The position numbers and the translations under genes are program-made. The notes under the pieces are model-generated. The model searched no databases. It was not told where the DNA came from and saw nothing but the letters and a program-made list of their open reading frames with translations. From positions 1 through 31,523 of IMG/VR virus record IMGVR_UViG_3300043137_000503: a DNA stretch of 31,523 bases. One strand, given 5' to 3'. Position 1 is the stretch's first letter. Each line of letters starts with the position of its first letter. Below are positions 5,951-31,523 of this stretch, piece by piece. Source of the stretch: a virus.

Positions 5951-6424
5951 ATGACACTGAATCAAGAACGATTAAAAGAGATACTAGACCTTGATGTATC
6001 TGCTTCAGTCTTCACCAGAAAGACATCTGGAAATGGTTTCAATAAAGGAGATGTGGCAGGCTGTGTTAACAACAGAGGCTACGTTCACATTAGGATTGCT
6101 GGCAAAAAATACTTAGCACACCGCCTCGTTTGGCTCTGGGTTTATGGCGAATGGCCTAAAGGACAACTGGACCACCTGTCAGGCGATAAGCTCGATAATC
6201 GCATCTCAAATCTGAAAGATGTTACTTGTAGAGAAAACCAGCAGAATCAAAGCAGACATCGAAATGGGCGATTGGTGGGTTGCTATTTTCATAAACAAAC
6301 AAGCAAGTGGTGTGCTCGAATAAAAATTGAAGGAAGTATGAAGTACCTCGGACTTTATCCTACTGAACTAGAAGCCCATAACGCATACATGTCCGCTCTA
6401 AACCAATTTCAATTACAAGCATAA
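5951..6424 (+). CDS. Free-standing HNH homing endonuclease with AP2-type DNA-binding domain
   Basis: 157 residues. The HNH nuclease (about 33-100) carries H57 (AHRLVW), D74-H75 and N83/N87 (DNRISNL), all expected catalytic or metal-site residues. The C-terminal AP2-like domain (105-157) starts NGRLVGCYFHK and would bind DNA. Such genes cut alleles lacking them and spread by recombination. It lies in the late operon between terL and portal with no sign of an intron, since both neighbours are intact. It is clearly paralogous to the genes at 11736 and 26410. AAAGGA upstream supports the start, and AAGGAA after the stop serves the portal gene. Confidence 0.9.
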   Translation: MTLNQERLKEILDLDVSASVFTRKTSGNGFNKGDVAGCVNNRGYVHIRIAGKKYLAHRLVWLWVYGEWPKGQLDHLSGDKLDNRISNLKDVTCRENQQNQSRHRNGRLVGCYFHKQTSKWCARIKIEGSMKYLGLYPTELEAHNAYMSALNQFQLQA

Positions 6425-11735: not shown

Positions 11736-12212
11736 ATGAATACACAATCCGATTTTAAAGAGATTTTAGATTATAACCCAGAGACTGTTGAGTTTACTTG
11801 GAAGAAAGCTTTAGGTACTAGAGCAAAAGCTGGTGATGTTGCTGGCCATGTTCATAAAGCTCAGGGTTATCATCAAATCAAGATTGCAGGAAAGCAATAC
11901 AAAACACATCGTCTAGTCTGGCTCTTCGAGACGGGAGAGTGGCCCAAAAACCACATCGACCATATGGACGGGAATCGACTTAACAACCACATCTCCAATT
12001 TGCGAGATGTGACGCAAAGAGAGAATAACCAGAATCTTGAATCTCATAGAAATGGTCGACTTGTAGGGTGCTACTTTTACAAGCCTCTTCAAAAGTGGAA
12101 AGCACAAATAAAAATCAACCGTAAAGCAAAGCACCTCGGCTACTTTCTAACAGAACTTCAAGCCCACCAAGCCTACCTCAAGGCATTAAACGAATTTCAA
12201 CTTCAAGCCTAA
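11736..12212 (+). CDS. Free-standing HNH homing endonuclease with AP2-type domain (second copy)
   Basis: 158 residues, paralogue of the gene at 5951: the same layout, ending in almost the same residues (LNEFQLQA against LNQFQLQA). HNH residues H58 (THRLVW), D75-H76 and N84/N88 are present, and the AP2-like domain (107-158) starts NGRLVGCYFYK. It sits between the decoration protein and tail fibre genes; its stop is ten bases before the fibre ATG, and AAGGAA there serves the fibre. It is the first gene after leader B, so its insertion may have separated the fibre gene from its original leader. Confidence 0.9.
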   Translation: MNTQSDFKEILDYNPETVEFTWKKALGTRAKAGDVAGHVHKAQGYHQIKIAGKQYKTHRLVWLFETGEWPKNHIDHMDGNRLNNHISNLRDVTQRENNQNLESHRNGRLVGCYFYKPLQKWKAQIKINRKAKHLGYFLTELQAHQAYLKALNEFQLQA

Positions 12213-16925: not shown

Positions 16926-19409
16926 ATGAGTCAGACGTTAACACTTAAAGCTAAAGGGTTGTATACCTCCTGGTCGGAATTTGCCGAAATACCAGAAGGA
17001 AGCCTCATTGTAGCGGATAACATCGATATCTCTACAGATAATATTGTTGAACCAAGACGGGGTTTCGAACGGCAATCCGCAGGCTACTCATCCTCGTCAA
17101 ACAGAACAGATAAGATTTGGTTCTATCAAGATAAGCAATTCGCTCACAATGGAACAACGCTTTTCTCTGCAACAAACGTATCCTATTTCAGCTCAGGTAC
17201 TTGGAATTCAGTAGGAACATTCTCCGCACCCTCAGAAGCAAGAATTAAGACTCTAGAAGCCTCTCAGAACCTCTACTTCACAACTTCAACTGGTGTGCAG
17301 AAGCTCGATGCCTACAATGGCACAGCAAGGCTTTCTGGTGCTTTTAAAGGATTGGACCTTGAAGCCTCAACAACTGGTGCTTCTGGCTTTCTAGCAAACA
17401 ACTTCAGAGTTGCTTACAGAATCCTTTGGGGTATTGAAGACGCAAACAAGAACTTACAGATTGGTGCTCCTTCACAACGAATTGACCTCAAGAATGTTGC
17501 TGGTGGAACCAGAGATGTTTCTTTAACCTTGACCATTCCCTCTGGTGTCACTACCTCATGGTTGTATCAAGTCTACAGAAGCTCACAAATCGATAACACC
17601 TCTGCAGACATTGAACCAAACGATGAGCTTCAGCTTGTCTATGAAGGTAACCCAACAGCAGGTCAAATTACTGCGGGAACCATTACACTCACAGACCTTG
17701 TTCCTGATGCTTTAAGAGGAGCGACAATCTACACCGCTGCTTCTCAAGAAGGCATCGCCTACTCAAACGAGAGACCTCCACTGGCAAAAGACTTGGCAAC
17801 TTTCAGGGACACTACCTTTTATTCAAACATCACTTCAAAACATCGCTACTACCTGACCATCCTTGGTGTCTCTGGAACCAATGGTATGGCTGTAAACGAT
17901 ACGATTTACATCGATGGAATCACTTACACCGGTAAAGCAGCTGAGACTGTAGCATCTGCTCAGTTCAAAGTAACTACTTCTGGCTCTGCCTCACAGAACA
18001 TCAAAGACACAGCACTATCACTGGTCAAAATCATCAACAGACACACTTCATCAACTGTCTATGCCTATTACCTCTCTGGACCTGATGACCTTCCTGGGAA
18101 GATTCTGCTGGAAGAGAGAAGTATCGGTGGTTCAGCTTTTGTCATCAGAGCGTCAAGAGCATCGAGCTTGAGTCCTTCAGGTATCCCTTCAAGTGGAAGC
18201 ACTGAGACCTCAACAAACGACAACTTCAAGAACGGTCTGATGTGGTCAAAGCCTTTTCAACCTGAAGCAGTTCCTCTAGTGAACCAGCTGCAAGTTGGAA
18301 ACAAAGACAAGGCCATTCTGCGGATTGTTCCATTGAAAGATGCACTCATCATCTTCAAGGAAGAGGGTATCTACAGGCTTACTGGTTACTACCCGAGCTT
18401 TGACGTTGAATTGCTAGACTCATCTGCAAGACTTATTGGAAATGAAACCCCTCAGATTTTAAACAACCAAATCTTCTGCCTCACAGACCAGGGTGTCTCT
18501 GTAGTTGCTGACTCTGTTAAAATCATCTCCAGACCCATAGAGCAGACGCTTCTTGAACTGTTCGCATCAAGCTTGGCACTGGTGAAGTCTGTTGGTTTTG
18601 GCTGTGCCTATGAGACTGAGAGAAAGTATTACCTTTGGCTTCCCCAGAGTGAGAATGCTACCTATGCAACCCAGGCTTTTGTCTACAACGTTTTCACAAA
18701 TACCTGGGTCAGACATCTTGTCAATGCATCCACTGCACTCACCACAACGACCCAGCTCTATGTTGGTGACCCAACCTCTAACTTCATTTTAAAAGACAGA
18801 AAGAGCTACACATTCAGAGACTATGGTGACTACAAAGCAGTGGTGACTATAATTTCCTCAGCTGGAAACACCTTAACTTTGGACTCCATTGCAAGTGTAG
18901 TGGTGGGTGATTTGATTTATCAGACATCCTCAATATTTGCCTATGTGACGTCCCTTGATAGCTTGGCTTCTACCGTTGTAGTTAGCACAAATCCTGGCTT
19001 CACAAGCGCCGCCGCAGACCTTCTATCTGCTATTAATGTTACCCTAAAATGGCTCCCGATTGCTGCTGGAAATCCAGGCATCACAAAATCCTTTCACACC
19101 ACACAGCTCATCTTTAAATCCAGGTTCACTGGCATCGGTTACATGACCTTTGAATCAGACCTCTCATCTTCAGTTGAGAATGTGGCTTTACAGGGCGGAG
19201 AAATTGATGCTTGGGGGCTGTTTAGATGGGACTTCGCTCCTTGGGGTGGGGACACTCAGAAAAGACCACTTCGACAATGGGTACCTCGTACAAAGCAACG
19301 CTGCTCACAGCTTACAGTGGGGTTCACTCATGCTTTTGCATTCTCGGGCTGGCAGCTGCAAGGGCTATCCGTTCACTTTGAGGGCGGCTCAGAGAAAACT
19401 GACCGCTAA
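16926..19409 (+). CDS. Tail nozzle / DNA stabilisation protein (P22 gp10 / T7 gp12-like)
   Basis: 827 residues, immediately after the adaptor. It would form the hexameric nozzle that seals packaged DNA. The N-terminus (FAEIPEGSLIVADNIDISTDNIVEPRRGF) and the central DALIIFKEEGIYRLTGYYP followed by CLTDQGVSVVAD are the propeller-type motifs of this family. Two extra beta-rich segments, about 316-410 and 637-700, enlarge it; the first resembles the putative decoration protein at 11062. AAGGAA supports the ATG. Size matches T7 gp12 better than P22 gp10. Confidence 0.75.
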   Translation: MSQTLTLKAKGLYTSWSEFAEIPEGSLIVADNIDISTDNIVEPRRGFERQSAGYSSSSNRTDKIWFYQDKQFAHNGTTLFSATNVSYFSSGTWNSVGTFSAPSEARIKTLEASQNLYFTTSTGVQKLDAYNGTARLSGAFKGLDLEASTTGASGFLANNFRVAYRILWGIEDANKNLQIGAPSQRIDLKNVAGGTRDVSLTLTIPSGVTTSWLYQVYRSSQIDNTSADIEPNDELQLVYEGNPTAGQITAGTITLTDLVPDALRGATIYTAASQEGIAYSNERPPLAKDLATFRDTTFYSNITSKHRYYLTILGVSGTNGMAVNDTIYIDGITYTGKAAETVASAQFKVTTSGSASQNIKDTALSLVKIINRHTSSTVYAYYLSGPDDLPGKILLEERSIGGSAFVIRASRASSLSPSGIPSSGSTETSTNDNFKNGLMWSKPFQPEAVPLVNQLQVGNKDKAILRIVPLKDALIIFKEEGIYRLTGYYPSFDVELLDSSARLIGNETPQILNNQIFCLTDQGVSVVADSVKIISRPIEQTLLELFASSLALVKSVGFGCAYETERKYYLWLPQSENATYATQAFVYNVFTNTWVRHLVNASTALTTTTQLYVGDPTSNFILKDRKSYTFRDYGDYKAVVTIISSAGNTLTLDSIASVVVGDLIYQTSSIFAYVTSLDSLASTVVVSTNPGFTSAAADLLSAINVTLKWLPIAAGNPGITKSFHTTQLIFKSRFTGIGYMTFESDLSSSVENVALQGGEIDAWGLFRWDFAPWGGDTQKRPLRQWVPRTKQRCSQLTVGFTHAFAFSGWQLQGLSVHFEGGSEKTDR

Positions 19410-19870: not shown

Positions 19871-21610
19871 ATGGCATTCGTTCAAACGCTAGAAGACGAC
19901 GAAGATAAAGACAAGCCTCAAGAGCAACAAGGTGCGGAAAAGGTCCTTTCTACGGGGCAAGGGTCAACTATCCCTACAGGCGGTTCCTCAACTGCTCAAT
20001 CCCCTGAAGGCAAAAAAGCCTCAAGTACTGGTTGGTCAAATCTCACACAATACATTGATGCCAATAAGGGTAACGACGTTGCTCTGGCAGATAAAATTGG
20101 CTCTACTGTGGATAACCAAGCAACCACAATCAAGGACACTCAGAACACCCTTGGAACCAAAGCAACTACTGACATCGCAAAGAGCATAGTCAAGGATTCT
20201 GGTGTCATATCTGGGCTGAATTCTAATCCCACTGCGGTGAATAAGGATGCTTTCGCCGCACAAAGAAATGCAACTTACAAAGGTCCAAATGATACATCTG
20301 ACTACACTGAATACGCAAAACAGCAAGCAGACCTGAACAAGTTTAAAGGAACGCTCGATAATACCAACTCACAAGAAGGCAGAGAAGTACTTCTCACTGA
20401 TGCCTATAAGAGAAACGACTACAATCAAGGTATGAAGAAGCTCGATGGTTTCATTCTTGGTGCCAGTGAGGGTTCAAAGCAGAAGATTGCAGACCTCAAC
20501 AACAAATACTCGGGTGTTGAAACAGATTGGAATAAATTTAACGACGAAATCAGAGGTTCCATTACTGGTGCAAGAGAAGCTACAAAGAAGACTGCTGAAG
20601 CAACAAACAAAGCTTATCAAGATGCCCTGAAGGCTACAGAAGCAAATGTTAACGCAGCAAAAACCTCTGCACAAACAAACAGTGCTCAAAGACAGCAACA
20701 GTTCAATTCACTCACTTCAAACCTCAGTAACCAAGACCCTAACGTAAGAGCTGAGGCTATGAAACAAGCTGGCATCGACCCGTCGGTTGGTGAGTGGTTG
20801 ATGAGCAGGGGAGTGCAACCAAAAGACCTTCTTTCACAAGCCGGTGGGGCAAAGGTTGGAAACTTCCTTCAAGATGGTGAAGCACAGAAATACTCTGCTT
20901 TGATGAACCTCGATGACAAGCAAGTAAACGAAGACCTGACCAGTAAGGGTGTCACTGACCAAGTGTTCAACTCGGATGGCATCAAAATAAAAGGTGCTGC
21001 TGATGCAAAGGCTTTGCAAGATTCACTCAATTCTCAAAGAGCCTCAAAACAATCCGAGCGAATTAAACAATCTGAGCGTTTAAGAGCCAAAATCAATCAG
21101 GGTGTTTATGACCAAGAAGTAGCTTCTGCAACAGGTCTTTCACAAGACGAGTTCAGCTATGCAAGAGCGAATGGAATCAATCTTTCAAACGACTTCAGAA
21201 CAGGTGCAACTCTCAACGTTGGTGACGTAGCAAACAACGACCAAAGAAAGCAATGGGGTGACCTGAAGGCTCTACTTGGTATCAATGACAACTTCAACAT
21301 TCAAGACACACAAGATGAAGGCAACGCATTCAGTTACAATTCTGGAAATGTTGTTTCTCAAATTGGTCAGAAGAGAGCTGCTCAAGCTGCAGAGGCGGAA
21401 AGACAGAGAGTTGAGGCGGAGAAAGCTGCTGCTGAAGCTGAGAGAAAGCGTCAACAACAATTGCAGGAAACTGGAGTTGAAGGTCTCAATACTGACTTTG
21501 GTAATCCAAGCAACCCTACACCTCAGGCTGGAGCTGGGGAAGCTCCGGCACCAGACAATGCTCTATCAAGAAAAATCAACAAATTTGGCAATTGGCTTTC
21601 AGGGAAATAA
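19871..21610 (+). CDS. Ejection-type internal virion protein
   Basis: 579 residues, Gln/Asn/Ala/Lys-rich, largely helical, no signal peptide. Long coiled-coil regions around 225-285 and 500-531 (AEAERQRVEAEKAAAEAERKR) are separated by a middle domain (NVRAEAMKQAGIDPSVGEWLMSRG). Position after the nozzle and needle slot matches the P22 ejection genes (14, 7, 20, 16), whose products leave the virion and help DNA cross the envelope. Residues about 533-551 carry TGVEGLNTDFGNPSNPTPQ, a pattern almost repeated in the small lipoprotein at 26235. Exact P22 counterpart cannot be set. Confidence 0.6.
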   Translation: MAFVQTLEDDEDKDKPQEQQGAEKVLSTGQGSTIPTGGSSTAQSPEGKKASSTGWSNLTQYIDANKGNDVALADKIGSTVDNQATTIKDTQNTLGTKATTDIAKSIVKDSGVISGLNSNPTAVNKDAFAAQRNATYKGPNDTSDYTEYAKQQADLNKFKGTLDNTNSQEGREVLLTDAYKRNDYNQGMKKLDGFILGASEGSKQKIADLNNKYSGVETDWNKFNDEIRGSITGAREATKKTAEATNKAYQDALKATEANVNAAKTSAQTNSAQRQQQFNSLTSNLSNQDPNVRAEAMKQAGIDPSVGEWLMSRGVQPKDLLSQAGGAKVGNFLQDGEAQKYSALMNLDDKQVNEDLTSKGVTDQVFNSDGIKIKGAADAKALQDSLNSQRASKQSERIKQSERLRAKINQGVYDQEVASATGLSQDEFSYARANGINLSNDFRTGATLNVGDVANNDQRKQWGDLKALLGINDNFNIQDTQDEGNAFSYNSGNVVSQIGQKRAAQAAEAERQRVEAEKAAAEAERKRQQQLQETGVEGLNTDFGNPSNPTPQAGAGEAPAPDNALSRKINKFGNWLSGK

Positions 21611-21622
21611 AAGGAAACAATC

Positions 21623-23032
21623 ATGGGTATTCTAGACTTGTTCGGGGGTAATACAGCCTCTGAAGATAGAAAAGCAAAACAAAAGCTCGACGAGATGGGA
21701 AATGTTATTGAAGACGTGGATACCCCAGTCTTTGAAGACATCGTTCCAGACAACTACAGCTGGCAAGGTGATTTGAACCCTGCTGCACTTGTTGATGCTC
21801 AGACAGTTTCTGCACCTGATAAGTTAAATTACGAAGGTGTAGATTCGTTCCTTGCAGACAACTATGAAGCACAAGATTCATTGCTAAACGACATCAATGT
21901 TGACCCCCGACTTCAAGACAACCAGATGGCTGCTCTAGCAAGCCTTCAGGGTATCATCGACAATGGTGGAATGAGCTTAAAAGAGCAGGCTCAGATGCAA
22001 AAGCTTCAGGGTGATGTAGGTGCTGCTGACAAGGGTCGCAGAGATGCTATCCTGCAGAACATGCAAGCCAAAGGACAGTCTGGTGGTGGTTTAGAACTAC
22101 TGGCTCAGATGCAATCATCCCAAGCTGCTACAGACAGAGCTTCACAAGGTGGCTTAGACGCTGCTGCTATGGCACAAGAGAGAGCTTTGAGTGCTATCAT
22201 GCAACAAGGGAACATGTCTGGTCAGATGCGAGACCAAAGCTTTGGCGAACAGTCTCAGCAAGCCTCGGCACAGGATGCTATCAACAAGTTCAATACTCAA
22301 AACAAGATGAACACTTCTCAGTTTAATGCTGGTGTAAATAACAATGCTGGCCAGTTTAATGCTGGGAACACACTTGATACAGGCAAGTTTAACATACAGG
22401 GTACTCAGCAAAACAAGCAATTTAATGCTGGTCAAGAACAAGGTGCACAGCAGTCCAACGCCAATACTGTGAATGACATGGCAACAAAGACTTGGGGTGC
22501 AAAACAAGACCTTTCTAACATGAACACTGGTGCTTCTAATCAAGCCATGATTCAGAACAAAGTAAACAAGCCTCAGAACATGTTTGACAATGCTTCAAAG
22601 AAAGCAGGAATGCAGCAAGGTGCTCTTGGTGCTCAGGCTGATTATTACACTATGCTTGGCGACCGCAAGAAGAAAGAAGCTGCTGAAACATTGGGTGCTA
22701 TTACCAAAGGTGCAACCGCTATTGGAGGTGCAGCACTCAGCGCAGGAATGATGGCTTCAGATGAACGAGTAAAGAAAGACATCAAGAAAGTCTCTCCTGA
22801 AGCAATTCAAGAGTTCTTCTCGGCGTTTGACCCAAAAAGTTACAAATACAAATCTCAAGAACATGGTGAAGGTGATAAAGTCGGTCTCATGGTCCAGGAT
22901 ATTGAAGACACTGAACTCGGCCAGAAGATGGTTAGAGAGCAGGACGGCGTCAAGGCAATTGATAAGCAAACCCTTGAAGGGGTCATGTTATCGGCTATTT
23001 CAGAACTCATGAAAGAAAAAAGGAAAAAGTAA
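21623..23032 (+). CDS. Ejection-type protein with FNAG repeats and C-terminal S74 self-cleaving chaperone
   Basis: 469 residues. The N-terminal half is Gln/Ala-rich and helical. About 229-275 contains several QFNAG-type repeats about ten residues apart. The last 91 residues are an intramolecular chaperone of the endosialidase/peptidase S74 kind: S379 in SDERVKKDI, GLMVQDIED, and a terminal helix (LEGVMLSAISELMKEK). In this family, Ser and Lys drive self-cleavage before the Ser, so the product would be 378 residues plus a released chaperone. The domain usually ends tail fibres; here it is in the ejection block. AAAAGGAA supports the start. Confidence 0.75.
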   Translation: MGILDLFGGNTASEDRKAKQKLDEMGNVIEDVDTPVFEDIVPDNYSWQGDLNPAALVDAQTVSAPDKLNYEGVDSFLADNYEAQDSLLNDINVDPRLQDNQMAALASLQGIIDNGGMSLKEQAQMQKLQGDVGAADKGRRDAILQNMQAKGQSGGGLELLAQMQSSQAATDRASQGGLDAAAMAQERALSAIMQQGNMSGQMRDQSFGEQSQQASAQDAINKFNTQNKMNTSQFNAGVNNNAGQFNAGNTLDTGKFNIQGTQQNKQFNAGQEQGAQQSNANTVNDMATKTWGAKQDLSNMNTGASNQAMIQNKVNKPQNMFDNASKKAGMQQGALGAQADYYTMLGDRKKKEAAETLGAITKGATAIGGAALSAGMMASDERVKKDIKKVSPEAIQEFFSAFDPKSYKYKSQEHGEGDKVGLMVQDIEDTELGQKMVREQDGVKAIDKQTLEGVMLSAISELMKEKRKK

Positions 23033-24208: not shown

Positions 24209-25999
24209 ATGCCAGTTAGTTTTTATGACAAAGAAGGTAACCTTCAGTCAGTGCCAGATGCTTTCGATGACCAAGGCAATAACGTAGCAGTGAATCACTT
24301 GCGTTCTAAAGGCTACAAGACAGGACAGAACTTCGTCGGAAATGAGACCAGTAAGAAACCTGGAGTTCCAGTTTTCATTCCTGATGAAGAAATTAGTGAC
24401 GCAGTCAAAACGGGTAAATTTGATACTCCTGAAACATGGGAAGCAAAGTTAAAACAACCAGAATTCACCGCAACACAGTCTGCTCTGCGAGGAGCTGCTC
24501 AAGGTGCTACGTTTGGTTTTGCAGATGAAATCACAGCTGGTGCTCAGTCTGTATTCGGAGACAAGACTTACAAGCAAGCTAGAGATGAGAATCGTAATTT
24601 TGATAGAGCCTCTGAAGAACAGAACCCCAACGCTTACCTTGGAGGTAACGTCGCTGGCGGTCTTGCTACAGCGGTCATTCCTGCTGGCGCTGCTGCTGGT
24701 TTAGGTCGAATGGCTGCTCAAGGTGCTGCGATGGGTGGCGTTGCTGGTCTTGGTGCAAGTGAAGCAGAAGACCTGCAAGGAATGGTAAAGGACACAGCAA
24801 TTGGTGCAGGATTCGGTGGTGCTATTCCGGTAGGAATGAACCTCGCTGGTAAAGCTATCAGTAAAGTTGCAAAGCCTCTGGTGAAAGGTGTGAACAAGGT
24901 TGCTTTTGATGTTGACTCAGATGTGACTGAAGCATTGATGAATAATCCAAAAGCATTGCAGGGTGCAAAGTCTGTTTCTGGTCTTGAAGATGATGTTGTG
25001 CAGTCTGCAAACAGAATGAAGGAACGGGTCTCACAAGGTAGCAGTGAGGCTTGGGATACACTCGGGCAGAGTAAACTCACAAATGCAGAAACTACAAAGA
25101 AGACCATTCTTGAGAGTCTTGAAAAGAATCTGTTTGATAAGAATCATTTGAAAATTAACCCTGATGGGCAAGTGGTAGCAAACCCACTGAGTCAATCCCA
25201 AAGAGTTATCAAACAAGCAGAAGCAATAAAGCAATACCTCACAAACACTGACCTCTCAGAGGTTGAACTGAAGAAGTTTGTTCTGTCTCTTGATGATGAA
25301 ATTGACTGGGACAAGAAAGCTCTCAAGGCTTCAAATGAGTTCCTGAAGAGTATCAGACATGATGTTGACCAGAATCTGAAGTCTCTAAACCCTGACTACA
25401 AAAAGGCAATGGAAGGTGTTGCCGATGACGTAAGCACTCTATCAGCTACCACAAAAGATTTTGGTTTGAAGAAAGCGGTTGACGAGTATGGAAACAGCAC
25501 TCTAGGCGGTTCTGACCTGACGCTATCCAAAGTGAAGACAATGAAGGACTCTGTAGGTAAAGACCAACTTCTCTACAGGAAGGAAAACCTCGACAAGCTC
25601 GACCCAAATCTGAATGCTGAGTTTGAGAAAGCAAGACTTGCTGAAAGAGCCTCTGGTGGTGTTACCAACGGTTCAAGAAACTCAATAACTGGTGCTGTAA
25701 TTGGTGGTGCCATTGGTACTGCTGTGGGTGGTCCATTGGGCTCAATAATTGGTGGAGCTGCAGGTGTGGCTGCCGGTAGAGTCACTGACAAGTATGGGCG
25801 AGTTATAGGGCAGAACCTTGCAAAGGGTGCTGGGATAACAGCAAGCAAAGCAAAGCAAGCTCTGGAGAGCAAGTACGGTAAGTATTTCAAGGAAGGTGTT
25901 GGTAGAAGCATCAACTCTGCTGGTGTCACTCATTACCTGCTTTATTCGAAAGATTCTGAGTACCGTAAGCTTTATGATGAAGCAAAGAAGGAAGACTAA
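24209..25999 (+). CDS. Large ejection-type protein with GFADE motif and glycine-rich hydrophobic segments
   Basis: 596 residues, last gene of the late operon. About 98-110 is GATFGFADEITAG, a motif seen in many podovirus internal virion proteins. Two Gly/Ala-rich hydrophobic stretches, about 145-200 (GGLATAVIPAGAAAGLG, GFGGAIPVGMN) and 493-527 (GAVIGGAIGTAVGGPLG, IIGGAAGVAAG), could insert in membrane as glycine-zipper helices. Between them is a helical charged domain. This fits a P22 gp16/gp20-type protein that forms part of the trans-envelope DNA conduit. GAGGAC upstream supports the ATG; it overlaps the convergent HNH remnant by four bases. Confidence 0.6.
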   Translation: MPVSFYDKEGNLQSVPDAFDDQGNNVAVNHLRSKGYKTGQNFVGNETSKKPGVPVFIPDEEISDAVKTGKFDTPETWEAKLKQPEFTATQSALRGAAQGATFGFADEITAGAQSVFGDKTYKQARDENRNFDRASEEQNPNAYLGGNVAGGLATAVIPAGAAAGLGRMAAQGAAMGGVAGLGASEAEDLQGMVKDTAIGAGFGGAIPVGMNLAGKAISKVAKPLVKGVNKVAFDVDSDVTEALMNNPKALQGAKSVSGLEDDVVQSANRMKERVSQGSSEAWDTLGQSKLTNAETTKKTILESLEKNLFDKNHLKINPDGQVVANPLSQSQRVIKQAEAIKQYLTNTDLSEVELKKFVLSLDDEIDWDKKALKASNEFLKSIRHDVDQNLKSLNPDYKKAMEGVADDVSTLSATTKDFGLKKAVDEYGNSTLGGSDLTLSKVKTMKDSVGKDQLLYRKENLDKLDPNLNAEFEKARLAERASGGVTNGSRNSITGAVIGGAIGTAVGGPLGSIIGGAAGVAAGRVTDKYGRVIGQNLAKGAGITASKAKQALESKYGKYFKEGVGRSINSAGVTHYLLYSKDSEYRKLYDEAKKED

Positions 26000-26223
26000 T
26001 TACTCTGCGGGCTAAGGTTCTCTCGCAGATTTGCAATTCTGTTATCGTCTCGATTACCATTCAAGTGATAGGTGCCATTGACCGGAAATGTGCCGTAGAC
26101 GTAAAGCCAGGCTAAATCATTGGCCCTGTAATACACTCCGTCAATCTCGATGACTCTGTATCCATCGGGGTCGATTTCTCCTGCAACTTCTCCAGCTACC
26201 TTTCTTTGAGTTCCTCTTATCAT
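25996..26223 (-). CDS. Short HNH endonuclease remnant
   Basis: 75 residues from the ATG at 26223 (AAGGAG five bases upstream on the minus strand). It covers only the HNH half (VAGEIDPDGYRVIEIDG, AWLYVYGTFPVNG, HLNGNRDDNRIANLRE) and stops where the full-length paralogues continue into the AP2-like domain. The first His (AHRLVW in paralogues) reads ANDLAW here, and the DH pair reads YH, so it is probably inactive. The good RBS suggests it is still translated. It is the last gene of the leftward HNH-lipoprotein block and abuts the ejection gene end. Confidence 0.65.
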   Translation of the reverse strand: MIRGTQRKVAGEVAGEIDPDGYRVIEIDGVYYRANDLAWLYVYGTFPVNGTYHLNGNRDDNRIANLRENLSPQSN

Positions 26224-26234
26224 AAAGTCTCCTT

Positions 26235-26396
26235 TTAATTTGTTAAACAAGTATTATCTTCAGGAATAGGGTTGTCTGGGTTATTAAAATCTGTTTCTAG
26301 GTTCTCGACTCCAACTTCGCCAGTTGTAACTTTCTCACACTCTCTACCACAGGAAATTGCTAGAGCGAGTAAAGGTATCAGGAATATGATTTTCAT
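26235..26396 (-). CDS. Small lipoprotein sharing a motif with the phage ejection protein
   Basis: 53 residues. A signal peptide (MKIIFLIPLLALAIS) ends at lipobox Cys16, so the mature 38-residue chain would be lipid-anchored. Start 26396 is chosen because it opens the signal peptide and AAAGG lies upstream; longer starts would overlap the HNH gene. Residues about 27-45 read VGVENLETDFNNPDNPIPE, matching TGVEGLNTDFGNPSNPTPQ in the ejection protein at 19871 as GVExLxTDFxNPxNPxP. Two further Cys (19 and 50) could form a disulphide. Possible roles: superinfection exclusion, or an envelope docking partner. Expressed from a host-type promoter on the opposite strand to the late genes. Confidence 0.7.
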   Translation of the reverse strand: MKIIFLIPLLALAISCGRECEKVTTGEVGVENLETDFNNPDNPIPEDNTCLTN

Positions 26397-26409: not shown

Positions 26410-26895
26410 CTATGCTGTGAGTGGATGATGTCCAAACCATTCGAAGTGAGTGTCTCTATAAGCGGTGTGCGCTTCTGATTCTGTTAAATAGAGACCGAGG
26501 GATACTTTTTCCCCATTGATACGGATTTCAGCATGCCACTTATTTTTCTGTTTATGATAGTAACATCCCACCAGACGGCCATTTCTGTGAGATTTCTGGT
26601 TCTGTTGGTTTTCCCTATTAGAGACATCTCGTAAATTTTCAATACGATTATCAAGTTTATCATTGTTAATGTGGTCTATCTGGCCTTTTGGCCAATCGCC
26701 AGTTTCAAATAGCCAGACCAGTCGATGTGCATAGTAGTTTCTACCTTTGATTCCAATGTAGTGGTAGCCTTTAACTTTATTAACACATCCAGCGATGTCC
26801 CCAACTTTGACGTTTTGACGAGGTTTCTTCCAAGTAAACTCTGCTGTCTCTCGACGGTAATTTAGTAACTCTTTAAATTCTTCTAAAGTTAACAT
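26410..26895 (-). CDS. HNH homing endonuclease with AP2-type domain (third full copy)
   Basis: 161 residues, paralogue of 5951 and 11736, here on the minus strand. HNH residues H57 (AHRLVW), D74-H75 (QIDH) and N83/N87 are intact; the AP2-like domain (105-148) begins NGRLVGCYYHK. The C-terminus differs from the other copies (EWFGHHPLTA instead of FQLQA). AAGGA eight bases upstream of the ATG at 26895 is a good RBS. It leads a leftward transcript from the perfect promoter at 26930-26958, followed 13 bases later by the lipoprotein gene, so homing could carry the lipoprotein along. Confidence 0.9.
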   Translation of the reverse strand: MLTLEEFKELLNYRRETAEFTWKKPRQNVKVGDIAGCVNKVKGYHYIGIKGRNYYAHRLVWLFETGDWPKGQIDHINNDKLDNRIENLRDVSNRENQQNQKSHRNGRLVGCYYHKQKNKWHAEIRINGEKVSLGLYLTESEAHTAYRDTHFEWFGHHPLTA

Positions 26896-26929: not shown

Positions 26930-26958
26930 ATTATACCATGTATCATATAGCATGTCAA
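26930..26958 (-). promoter_or_regulatory. Perfect-consensus sigma70 promoter, leftward
   Basis: On the minus strand: TTGACA (26958-26953), 17-bp spacer, TATAAT (26935-26930). Both hexamers and spacing match the consensus exactly. It reads into the HNH, lipoprotein and HNH-remnant genes, against the late operon, and so should be active in a lysogen with host RNA polymerase alone unless repressed. Confidence 0.85.
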
Positions 26959-27315: not shown

Positions 27316-27345
27316 GGACGATATGTATTGTTAAGGAGAAGTACA

Positions 27346-27528
27346 ATGAATAACGAAAAATTGCAAGTTCCTGAAAAGGTTAACAAGAATATAGTGGTAC
27401 CGGTGGCGACTAGTACCCCTGAAGTCCAAAAAATTGTTGATTCGGGTGATAGACAGCAGTTGATTGAGTTCAATGTGAAGCGTATGGCTCCTCTATTAAA
27501 TTCATTGAGAGAATATGATAGTAAATGA
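27346..27528 (+). CDS. Putative antitoxin partner of the Doc toxin
   Basis: 60 residues from ATG 27346, chosen for AAGGAG (27333-27338). It is directly upstream of and overlaps (ATGA) the Doc-type toxin gene, the classic antitoxin-first order with coupling. A Val/Lys/Asn-rich N-terminus is followed by a helical C-terminal half (RQQLIEFNVKRMAPLLNSLREYD) that could fill the toxin groove. It does not obviously look like Phd (no visible MazE/AbrB- or YefM-type DNA-binding part), so it may be an unusual antitoxin or need the region's other regulator for DNA binding. Confidence 0.55.
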   Translation: MNNEKLQVPEKVNKNIVVPVATSTPEVQKIVDSGDRQQLIEFNVKRMAPLLNSLREYDSK

Positions 27529-27914
27529 TAAATTGGCTGTCAAAGCAGGAGATTATCAATATCCATTCAATGATTCTTGTCCCCGGCGAGCCTGATGGTT
27601 TTCTTAATGAAAGCAATTTAGACGCAAGTCTCTATTCCCTCCAGTATTATGAAAACGAGCCACTTGTAAATTTAGCGGGACTTTTGTTATGGAAATTGAC
27701 AAAAGGTCATATTTTTCAGCAAGGTAATAAACGCACTGCAGTTGCGTCGACTGTTTTATTCCTGAACCTAAATAATGTAGATGTTGCATACCAGTATTCA
27801 GGGTCAGAGGATGACCCGCTCTACCAGCTAACAATCAATATAGCCATGAATTCAATTGAAGATATTGAGGTTGGACAGCACTTAGTGCGTACGATTAACT
27901 TTACGTACGATTAA
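27525..27914 (+). CDS. Doc-type (Fic/Doc fold) toxin
   Basis: 129 residues, the Doc family size. Residues 62-72 are HIFQQGNKRTA, the Doc form of the Fic motif (HxFx[DNQ][AG]NKR), with the catalytic His62, Asn68 and Arg70 present. Doc of phage P1 phosphorylates EF-Tu and stops translation. The region around (NEPLVNLAGLLLWKLTKGH before, VASTVLFLNLNN after) follows the family helices. It overlaps the antitoxin-like gene and ends 70 bases before a convergent regulator gene. In P1 the phd-doc pair keeps the plasmid prophage in the population, so it may have the same role here. Confidence 0.85.
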   Translation: MINWLSKQEIINIHSMILVPGEPDGFLNESNLDASLYSLQYYENEPLVNLAGLLLWKLTKGHIFQQGNKRTAVASTVLFLNLNNVDVAYQYSGSEDDPLYQLTINIAMNSIEDIEVGQHLVRTINFTYD

Positions 27915-28440: not shown

Positions 28441-29340
28441 TTAATTGCTATCTGTAAGATTCACTACCGAGCAATTACTGGCAGGAATTGTGAATGTATC
28501 AACAGCTGGGTTAAATTCGACATCATTATAGGTGATGACTGGCACCAGGGTTGAGCGATTAAGGCTAACTTCCCAATAACCTCCGCCGTTTGCGCCTCTC
28601 AAATCAAAAGACACAGATACAAACCCGAACTTAGCACCTGCCTGGCCTGAACCGTAATTTACAGAGCTACTGATTCCCTGATAGGCATCTTGGATTACCG
28701 CTTGGACTAAAACGTCCCCCGCATTAGTAATTTGTGCCTGATATTCATAGTATATGCCAGTAGTTTCAATTTGACCGGAGCAACGATAGGTTTGAATAAT
28801 TCTGCCATAATCTTTGCATATGTATTTGGCGCTGCCAACATCATCCTCACCTGAATCTTTTTGTCCATTTCCATTAGTATCATTGAATTGAGTGACCTTA
28901 CTACCTCCGAAGATGCAATTTGCTCCAGATGCCTCTGCGGTTATTGCGACACCCCTGAACTGCGGCTTGAAGTTCGGAATTTGATGTGTTGCAGACCCAC
29001 ACGTGACCAATCCCGAATCGGAGACTGTGCAATCAGTGCCTTCTTTGCCATTTGTCCCATCTTTTCCTGCTATATCAACGGTATTCCAAGAACCAGCAGT
29101 GCAAGTTCTGAATTCTTTCTCTACCAATAAATAAGCCAAAGACCCTTCATTCGATTCGGAGCACTTTGGCAGCTTTTGAGCTGAAGCGAATGACATCGAG
29201 GTTGATTTATCGGGTTGTGTGGGGAGTGGAGGGGTTTCTATGGTCTTTTCATCTGAAGCAGGAGCCTTTGTGGAGGTCTCAGCGGAACCACAAGAGACCG
29301 TAAAAGCAGCTAGAATAGTTAGTGAAATAGACATCTTCAT
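28441..29340 (-). CDS. Large secreted lipoprotein (moron-like)
   Basis: 299 residues. Signal peptide MKMSISLTILAAFTVS ends at lipobox Cys17. A Ser/Thr/Pro linker follows (to about 50), then a short collagen-like run (GKDGTNGKEGTDC, about 93-105), paired Cys and a DTNGNGQKDSGEDD stretch (about 152-165) with a metal-binding look. The C-terminal half is beta-rich with a Gly/Tyr/Asn pattern (YQGISSSVNYGSGQAG). The mix resembles surface lipoproteins of Bdellovibrionota-like bacteria, hence a host-derived lysogenic-conversion gene is likely. AAGGAG upstream supports the ATG. It diverges from the second XRE gene, sharing its regulatory region. Confidence 0.7.
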   Translation of the reverse strand: MKMSISLTILAAFTVSCGSAETSTKAPASDEKTIETPPLPTQPDKSTSMSFASAQKLPKCSESNEGSLAYLLVEKEFRTCTAGSWNTVDIAGKDGTNGKEGTDCTVSDSGLVTCGSATHQIPNFKPQFRGVAITAEASGANCIFGGSKVTQFNDTNGNGQKDSGEDDVGSAKYICKDYGRIIQTYRCSGQIETTGIYYEYQAQITNAGDVLVQAVIQDAYQGISSSVNYGSGQAGAKFGFVSVSFDLRGANGGGYWEVSLNRSTLVPVITYNDVEFNPAVDTFTIPASNCSVVNLTDSN

Positions 29341-31396: not shown

Positions 31397-31523
31397 CGGA
31401 TGATGTTTAATGTTGTATGTTGAAGAGCAGTCAATTAATCTTGAAAACTGATTACATTGATGGAGATTTACCTCGATGCTAGAATCAAGGAGAAGAGAGA
31501 TTGACTTAAATAACAGGGGAGGG
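31397..31523. repeat. Right copy of 127-bp terminal direct repeat
   Basis: Exact second copy of bases 1-127. The sequence upstream of this copy (31301-31396) is therefore the true left neighbour of position 1, which places the integrase 3' end directly beside the untranslated, origin-like region. Confidence 0.95.

What the first reader, a model, noticed from the sequence alone, without database searches (positions are those of the whole stretch)
26235..26396. Tiny lipoprotein copies a 17-residue pattern of the phage's own ejection protein
The 53-residue lipoprotein and the ejection protein at 19871 (about residues 533-551) share GVExLxTDFxNPxNPxP, 11 fixed positions in 17. The genes are on opposite strands with different codons, so it is not a recent DNA repeat. 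A prophage-expressed, envelope-anchored peptide that mimics part of an ejected protein could compete for its partner and block superinfection, or both may bind the same envelope protein. I know of no described system like this.
Basis: partly seen in the sequence, partly recalled or inferred. Interest (0 to 1): 0.8.

Follow-up and report, generated by a model that had tools for sequence, protein, structure and literature searches.

The report
Phage lipoprotein sharing ejection-protein motif
A temperate phage carries a tiny membrane-anchored protein, laid out like known proteins that lock out competing phages, which shares a 17-residue stretch with the phage's own likely DNA-delivery protein; this may block reinfection by occupying that protein's docking site, but no relative has yet been found in which to test it.

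Summary
The score is 75; the next short unrelated match in the phage scores 50, and the best non-paralogous one in 428 kb of control DNA scores 58. Codons are no more alike than the peptides require, so this is protein-level similarity, not a recent DNA copy.

The motif was found nowhere else searched: IMG/VR, phage and plasmid records, and 56-58 genomes of one host phylum. Three distant relatives (28-37% portal identity) are known; the two long enough to check lack the motif and the lipoprotein.

The lipoprotein has the three-Cys layout of Cor/Llp superinfection-exclusion (SE) lipoproteins. Its antisense placement after the late operon recalls T1 cor and rtp45. Its operon has the genome's only perfect sigma-70 promoter. 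Four known SE lipoproteins share no such segment with their own phage.

Best reading: an SE lipoprotein of Cor/Llp-like design that shows a docking peptide of the ejection protein as a decoy. The exclusion role is moderately supported; the decoy step is inference.

The parts
26235..26396 (-). 53-aa lipoprotein: signal peptide and lipobox LAIS|C, mature part of 38 aa with Cys1 (lipid), Cys5 and Cys35 (mature numbering)
   Evidence: Translation; Shine-Dalgarno-like GAAAGG upstream; satisfies the PROSITE PS51257-type lipobox by eye. No Pfam, NCBIfam or PADLOC hit; weak PHROG 'lipoprotein' hit (phrog_200, E 0.073) over signal peptide and N-terminus
26262..26312 (-). shared motif in the lipoprotein, GVENLETDFNNPDNPIP (residues 29-45)
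21473..21523 (+). shared motif in the putative ejection protein, GVEGLNTDFGNPSNPTP (residues 535-551); falls in the low-confidence stretch between helices 492-533 and 564-577 of a single-sequence model
19871..21610 (+). 579-aa putative ejection protein: mostly helical, no Cys, C-terminal amphipathic helix
   Evidence: Position behind the portal-to-hub gene set, same place as L038 12404-13813 and G059 (L112 17321-18679); helices; hydrophobic moment and Cys count. No Pfam or NCBIfam family; weak phrog_28970 hit, E 0.0017
26410..26895 (-). HNH_3/AP2-like homing endonuclease, first gene of the minus-strand operon
   Evidence: PF13392 E 6e-19; PHROG_99
25996..26223 (-). short HNH_3 protein, third gene of the operon (ORF listed from 26250; ATG with strong Shine-Dalgarno at 26223)
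   Evidence: PF13392 E 5e-9; sequence
26930..26958 (-). perfect extended -10 sigma-70-type promoter (TTGACA-17-TATAAT) upstream of the three-gene operon; the only 12/12 match in the window

Best explanation
The gene encodes a small, lipid-anchored, disulphide-closed superinfection-exclusion lipoprotein of Cor/Llp-like design, made from a strong promoter of its own on the strand opposite the late genes. Shown by sequence: the shared 17-residue motif, the lipobox, the three-Cys layout, the operon and the perfect promoter. Inferred: the lipoprotein sits on the periplasmic face of the outer membrane and shows the motif in a loop closed by Cys5-Cys35. In the ejection protein the same motif lies in a probably flexible linker next to a C-terminal amphipathic helix, and would dock on a membrane-near partner as the DNA conduit forms (the periplasmic face of the outer-membrane receptor, another envelope protein, or another conduit subunit). 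A lysogen that already carries the motif on a lipoprotein would occupy that partner, so a superinfecting phage of the same type fails to build its conduit.
For: (1) The motif match is far above chance and purely at amino-acid level. Codons at the five variable positions are random (4 of 15 nt equal) while 12 residues are kept, which points to selection on the peptide. (2) The motif makes up 17 of the 38 mature residues, so presenting it is most of what the lipoprotein can do. (3) Cys layout 16/20/50 of 53 matches Cor of T1 (17/25/73 of 75), N15 (17/28/76 of 78) and HK022 (17/28/76 of 77). Llp has a disulphide constraining its termini and binds the periplasmic face of FhuA (PMC9586334). (4) Antisense gene after the late or tail genes, as for T1 cor and rtp45. 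(5) Only 12/12 promoter in the genome; temperate phage. (6) In both proteins the motif lies 12-13 residues from a membrane anchor (lipid) or likely membrane-active element (amphipathic helix 563-576, highest hydrophobic moment in the protein). [quoted passage not shown]
Against: No relative carries both features, so coupling is untested. The syntenic proteins of L038 and G059 lack the motif, so it is not a general part of such proteins. Known SE lipoproteins (Rtp45 and three Cor) share no comparable segment with their own phage: best unrelated scores 31-44. There is no sequence homology to Llp or Cor. 'Ejection protein' rests on gene order only. The partner and the outer-membrane location are unknown. 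A self-directed decoy might also burden the phage's own progeny if the lipoprotein is made late.
Confidence: 0.38

Rival explanations
1. It is an SE lipoprotein of the Cor/Llp kind that jams the phage's outer-membrane receptor from the periplasm by allostery. The motif is only the receptor-binding peptide, and the ejection protein uses the same peptide to recognise the same receptor, with no competition during ejection itself.
For: Cys layout and gene placement; Llp and Rtp45 both work from the periplasmic face of the receptor (PMC9586334, PMC12685063).
Against: No homology to any known SE lipoprotein. Known members share nothing comparable with their own phage's proteins.
Confidence: 0.22
2. 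Both proteins carry the same short linear motif for a common host envelope partner, but the lipoprotein does something else, such as helping conduit assembly, altering the lysogen's envelope, or acting in lysis. Superinfection is not affected.
For: Short motif in a stretch predicted as non-helical, at low confidence, in both; conserved pattern with random codons.
Against: A late helper or spanin would be expected on the late strand; this gene is antisense with its own promoter. No adjacent or overlapping i-spanin partner was seen and there is no second transmembrane segment. The motif was not found in genomes of one host phylum.
Confidence: 0.2
3. The lipoprotein arose from an old fragment of an ejection-protein gene caught behind a signal peptide in a homing-endonuclease cassette. 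It is a passenger without a motif-dependent role.
For: It lies between two HNH genes in one operon, and the genome holds three HNH paralogs at about 57% identity; lower GC than the phage (0.36 against 0.44).
Against: A passenger would lose the motif, yet 12 residues are kept while the other five codons and the synonymous sites are randomised. No DNA similarity remains beyond what the peptides force.
Confidence: 0.12
4. Chance convergence of two flexible linkers rich in Asn, Pro and Asp.
For: Biased composition; a single pair, picked after the fact by a reader who scanned the whole window.
Against: 20,000 local-composition shuffles reach at most 53 against 75; in 428 kb of control contigs no non-paralogous pair scored above 58; the hit survives SEG masking.
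Confidence: 0.08

Closest known systems
Cor superinfection-exclusion lipoproteins (phages T1, N15, HK022)
   Same: Small lipoprotein; lipid Cys at residue 16-17, second Cys 4-11 residues later, third Cys 1-3 residues from the C-terminus; antisense moron after the tail genes in T1
   Different: No sequence similarity; shorter (53 against 75-78 aa); Cor shares no segment with its own phage's proteins (best unrelated scores 31-36)
Llp of phage T5 (binds FhuA)
   Same: Small outer-membrane lipoprotein with one disulphide constraining its termini, acting from the periplasmic side (PMC9586334)
   Different: T5 is a long-tailed siphovirus and Llp blocks receptor binding by allostery; no hit to its solved chain
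Rtp45 of phage Rtp (binds LptDE)
   Same: Small SE lipoprotein with one disulphide; minus-strand gene after the tail operon (PMC12685063)
   Different: Cys positions 20/30/38, not near the C-terminus; no segment shared with its tape measure protein (best unrelated score 44, elsewhere)
SieA of phage P22
   Same: Prophage exclusion whose escape mutations lie in the C-terminal regions of ejection proteins; P22-like short-tailed phage (PMC10883804); the window's portal weakly matches P22_portal, E 8e-5
   Different: Inner-membrane protein, not a lipoprotein; no shared motif reported
Ltp of phage TP-J34
   Same: Prophage lipoprotein acting on the C-terminal end of an ejected protein, the tape measure protein (PMC3952083)
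   Different: Gram-positive host; repeat domain proposed to bind the target through opposite charge, not a copy of the target

Membership tests
Cor/Llp-type superinfection-exclusion lipoproteins | Short lipoprotein with signal peptide and lipobox | tested here: met
   Sequence; mature part of 38 aa, +2 residue Gly
Cor/Llp-type superinfection-exclusion lipoproteins | One intramolecular disulphide joining the two ends (Cys soon after the lipid Cys and Cys near the C-terminus) | tested here: met
   Cys positions only: 16/20/50 of 53 against 17/25/73 of 75 (T1 Cor); bond formation not testable here
Cor/Llp-type superinfection-exclusion lipoproteins | Detectable sequence homology to Cor, Llp or Rtp45 | tested here: not met
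   No meaningful BLASTP match to Rtp45 or the three Cor; no PDB hit up to E 10; only a weak hit, E 0.073, to the PHROG 'lipoprotein' family
Cor/Llp-type superinfection-exclusion lipoproteins | Blocks infection by the same phage | not testable with these tools
   Needs an expression and plaque assay
o-spanin (Rz1-like) | Lipoprotein gene next to or overlapping an i-spanin, in the lysis cassette, late strand | tested here: not met
   Antisense to late genes, flanked by HNH genes; no adjacent i-spanin seen
P22-like ejection protein (for the 579-aa protein) | Large, mostly helical protein encoded behind the portal-to-hub gene set | tested here: met
   Gene order shared with L038 and G059; helices at low confidence
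P22-like ejection protein (for the 579-aa protein) | Sequence or profile match to a known ejection-protein family | tested here: not met
   No Pfam or NCBIfam match; one PHROG of unknown function at E 0.0017; syntenic proteins only E 0.03-0.09

The most novel reading that the evidence does not exclude
A prophage displays, on a lipid-anchored and disulphide-closed mini-protein, a copy of the docking peptide of its own ejected conduit protein, so that exclusion works by molecular mimicry of the phage's own injection machinery and is specific to phages with that peptide.
Probability: 0.3. Interest if true: 0.8.

Novelty: new variant of a known kind. Interest (0 to 1): 0.52.

Why it matters
Which envelope proteins short-tailed phages use when their ejected proteins build a conduit is largely unknown. 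If the shared motif is a docking peptide, it names a 17-residue bait with which to pull that partner out. It would also show that exclusion lipoproteins can work by copying a peptide of the injection machinery rather than only by jamming a receptor. The same search (small prophage lipoprotein against its own ejection or tape-measure proteins) can be run on any phage collection.

Tried and rejected
(a) Low-complexity or chance match: rejected by SEG masking, shuffles and control contigs.
(b) Recent duplication or gene conversion: DNA identity equals that expected from the peptides alone.
(c) Motif widespread: TDFxNPxNP has 34 exact DNA hits in IMG/VR, about what I estimate for chance from the pattern length; none has GVE in front, many are antisense or short frames, and the two that looked closest (L019, L004) are in contigs unrelated to this phage. 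GVExLxTDFxNP gave none, and GVExLxTDFxN gave one hit in a frame that does not look like a gene.
(d) Relatives by lipoprotein or ejection protein: none in IMG/VR or phage records for either, none in plasmids for the lipoprotein.
(e) Portal and hub queries found only distant relatives: L038, L039 and the prophage of G059.
(f) Host-genome search: reached one phylum (56-58 genomes, entered through an Oligoflexales genome) and one phylum I could not identify (395 genomes, portal query only, nothing). I could not reach genomes known to be Bdellovibrionota proper. No lipoprotein, ejection protein or motif found.
(g) o-Spanin reading: rejected on placement.
(h) Structure predictions from single sequences: low confidence (pLDDT 58 and 51), no fold search made.
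(i) Operator search: the inverted repeat AAGTG-N6-CACTT just downstream of the promoter has no second copy.

Full report
WHAT WAS CHECKED. The minus-strand ORF at 26396-26235 encodes MKIIFLIPLLALAISC|GRECEKVTTGEVGVENLETDFNNPDNPIPEDNTCLTN. It has a good lipobox, a Shine-Dalgarno-like site (GAAAGG) before its ATG, and lies 13 nt behind the stop codon of an HNH endonuclease gene and 11 nt before the ATG of a short HNH_3 gene. The three genes form one minus-strand operon. A perfect extended -10 promoter (TTGACA-17-TATAAT) lies at 26958-26930, 34 nt before the first ATG; it is the only 12/12 promoter match in the window.

THE SHARED MOTIF. The 579-aa protein at 19871-21610 carries ETGVEGLNTDFGNPSNPTPQ at residues 533-552 and the lipoprotein EVGVENLETDFNNPDNPIPE at 27-46: 13 of 20 identical, 12 of 17 in the core. 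BLAST gives E 1e-7 against that one protein, 1.7e-5 in an all-against-all of the window, and 8e-5 with low-complexity masking. Twenty thousand shuffles of both local sequences reached 53 against 75 observed (Gumbel p about 2e-8). The next short unrelated match in the window scores 50. Over 428 kb of other contigs (mostly viral, plus prophage regions; 6,680 ORF pairs) the only higher or comparable pairs are repeated C-termini in L008 that I read as tail-fibre paralogs; the best remaining pair scores 58. The match is not chance in any ordinary sense, though it is one pair picked after the fact. From the BLAST statistics I estimate about 3e-4 for the whole proteome.

PROTEIN-LEVEL, NOT DNA-LEVEL. 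34 of 51 nt agree; two random back-translations of the same peptides give 31.5 +/- 2.0. Six of 12 shared residues use the same codon, against 4.6 expected. The five variable codons agree in 4 of 15 nt, which is random (from the codon table). Either an old copy whose 12 residues were kept by selection while everything else drifted, or convergence on the same 12 residues: both point to a function of the peptide.

HOW FAR IT SPREADS. No relative of the lipoprotein was found in IMG/VR, 50,697 phage records or 72,556 plasmids, nor of the 579-aa protein in IMG/VR or phage records. The motif itself was searched as DNA: TDFxNPxNP has 34 hits in IMG/VR, about my chance estimate, none with GVE in front. 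GVExLxTDFxNP has none, and GVExLxTDFxN one, in a frame that does not look like a gene. The phage's nearest relatives are remote: L039, an IMG/VR fragment (37% portal identity); CP017838.1, a phage of Silvanigrella aquatica (L038; about 28% portal identity, same gene set for terminase, portal, coat, adaptor and hub); and a prophage in genome G059 (31%). L038 and G059 have a protein at the same place as the 579-aa one, but without the motif and without this lipoprotein; L039 ends before that region. In 56-58 genomes of the phylum reached through an Oligoflexales genome nothing turned up for the lipoprotein, the motif or the ejection protein. The host is not established; a bacterium of the Bdellovibrionota sphere is likely from L038 and G059.

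ANATOMY OF THE 579-AA PROTEIN. It lacks Cys and has no Pfam or NCBIfam match, only a weak PHROG hit of unknown function. A single-sequence AlphaFold model is weak (pLDDT 51) but shows long helices, the motif in a low-confidence stretch (534-562) between helix 492-533 and a short C-terminal helix 564-577. That last helix, NALSRKINKFGNWL, has the highest hydrophobic moment of the whole protein; the C-termini of the two syntenic proteins are likewise in the top 2% of their own. I call it an ejection protein because of gene order (behind hub 16926-19409 and ahead of two further large proteins and phrog_5880-like 24209-25999) and shape; that is inference.

The mature lipoprotein has three cysteines: the lipidated one, one four residues later, and one three residues before the end of the mature chain. 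Cor of T1 (17, 25, 73 of 75), N15 (17, 28, 76 of 78) and HK022 (17, 28, 76 of 77) have the same plan, and Llp of T5 has a disulphide that constrains its termini (PMC9586334). T1 cor and rtp45 are, like this gene, antisense genes after the tail genes. Llp and Rtp45 bind the periplasmic face of the phage's outer-membrane receptor (PMC9586334, PMC12685063). So the lipoprotein is laid out and placed like an SE lipoprotein, although no sequence homology is detectable. By contrast Rtp45 and the three Cor proteins share no segment with their own phage's proteins (best unrelated scores 31-44). The shared motif is therefore the unusual part, not the lipoprotein.

MECHANISM. Most likely (0.38): an exclusion lipoprotein showing the docking peptide of the ejection protein as a decoy. 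In both proteins the motif lies 12-13 residues from a membrane anchor or likely membrane-active helix, so both copies could sit at the same membrane face. The precedents for ejected proteins as the target of exclusion are good: P22 SieA escape changes map to the C-terminal regions of gp16 and gp20 (PMC10883804) and Ltp is proposed to act on the C-terminal end of a tape measure protein (PMC3952083); here too the motif is near the C-terminus. Steps shown: the motif, its significance, protein-level conservation, lipobox, Cys plan, operon, promoter, temperate genome. Steps inferred: outer-membrane location, disulphide, ejection role, docking function, common partner, competition, exclusion. Rivals: receptor jamming with the motif as a receptor-binding peptide (0.22), common partner without exclusion (0.20), passenger of the homing-endonuclease cassette (0.12), chance (0.08).

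VERDICT. A genuine and well-supported sequence oddity with a plausible mechanism that cannot be tested by comparison at present because the phage has no close relative in the collections. New variant of a known kind (small SE lipoproteins), conditional on the exclusion role.

Noticed in passing
1-127 and 31397-31523: Exact 127-bp terminal direct repeat, so the record is probably a complete circular or terminally redundant genome of about 31.4 kb.
   Followed up: partly
5951-6424, 11736-12212, 26410-26895, 25996-26223: Three HNH_3/AP2-like endonuclease paralogs at about 57% identity in one small genome, two between late genes and one with its own perfect promoter, plus a fourth, truncated HNH_3 protein.
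   Followed up: partly
27328-27914: Likely toxin-antitoxin pair: Doc/Fic toxin (TIGR01550 E 2e-12, PF02661) overlapping a small upstream ORF.
   Followed up: no
28441-29340 (-): Second prophage lipoprotein, 299 aa with a DUF7151 domain (E 3e-7), between two Cro/CI-type regulator genes; another candidate envelope-conversion gene.
   Followed up: no
21623-23032: Putative virion protein ending in a Peptidase_S74 (endosialidase chaperone) domain although it is not an obvious tail spike.
   Followed up: no
L008 6331-9333: Four frames share a C-terminal segment (H-N-x-x-P ... W-K-R-T-A), two of them short frames on the opposite strand: looks like spare tail-fibre ends, as in invertible fibre modules.
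   Followed up: no
L038 21111-25296 and 30344-34358: The Silvanigrella phage record holds a block of several genes twice, identical at protein level; assembly effect or real duplication.
   Followed up: no
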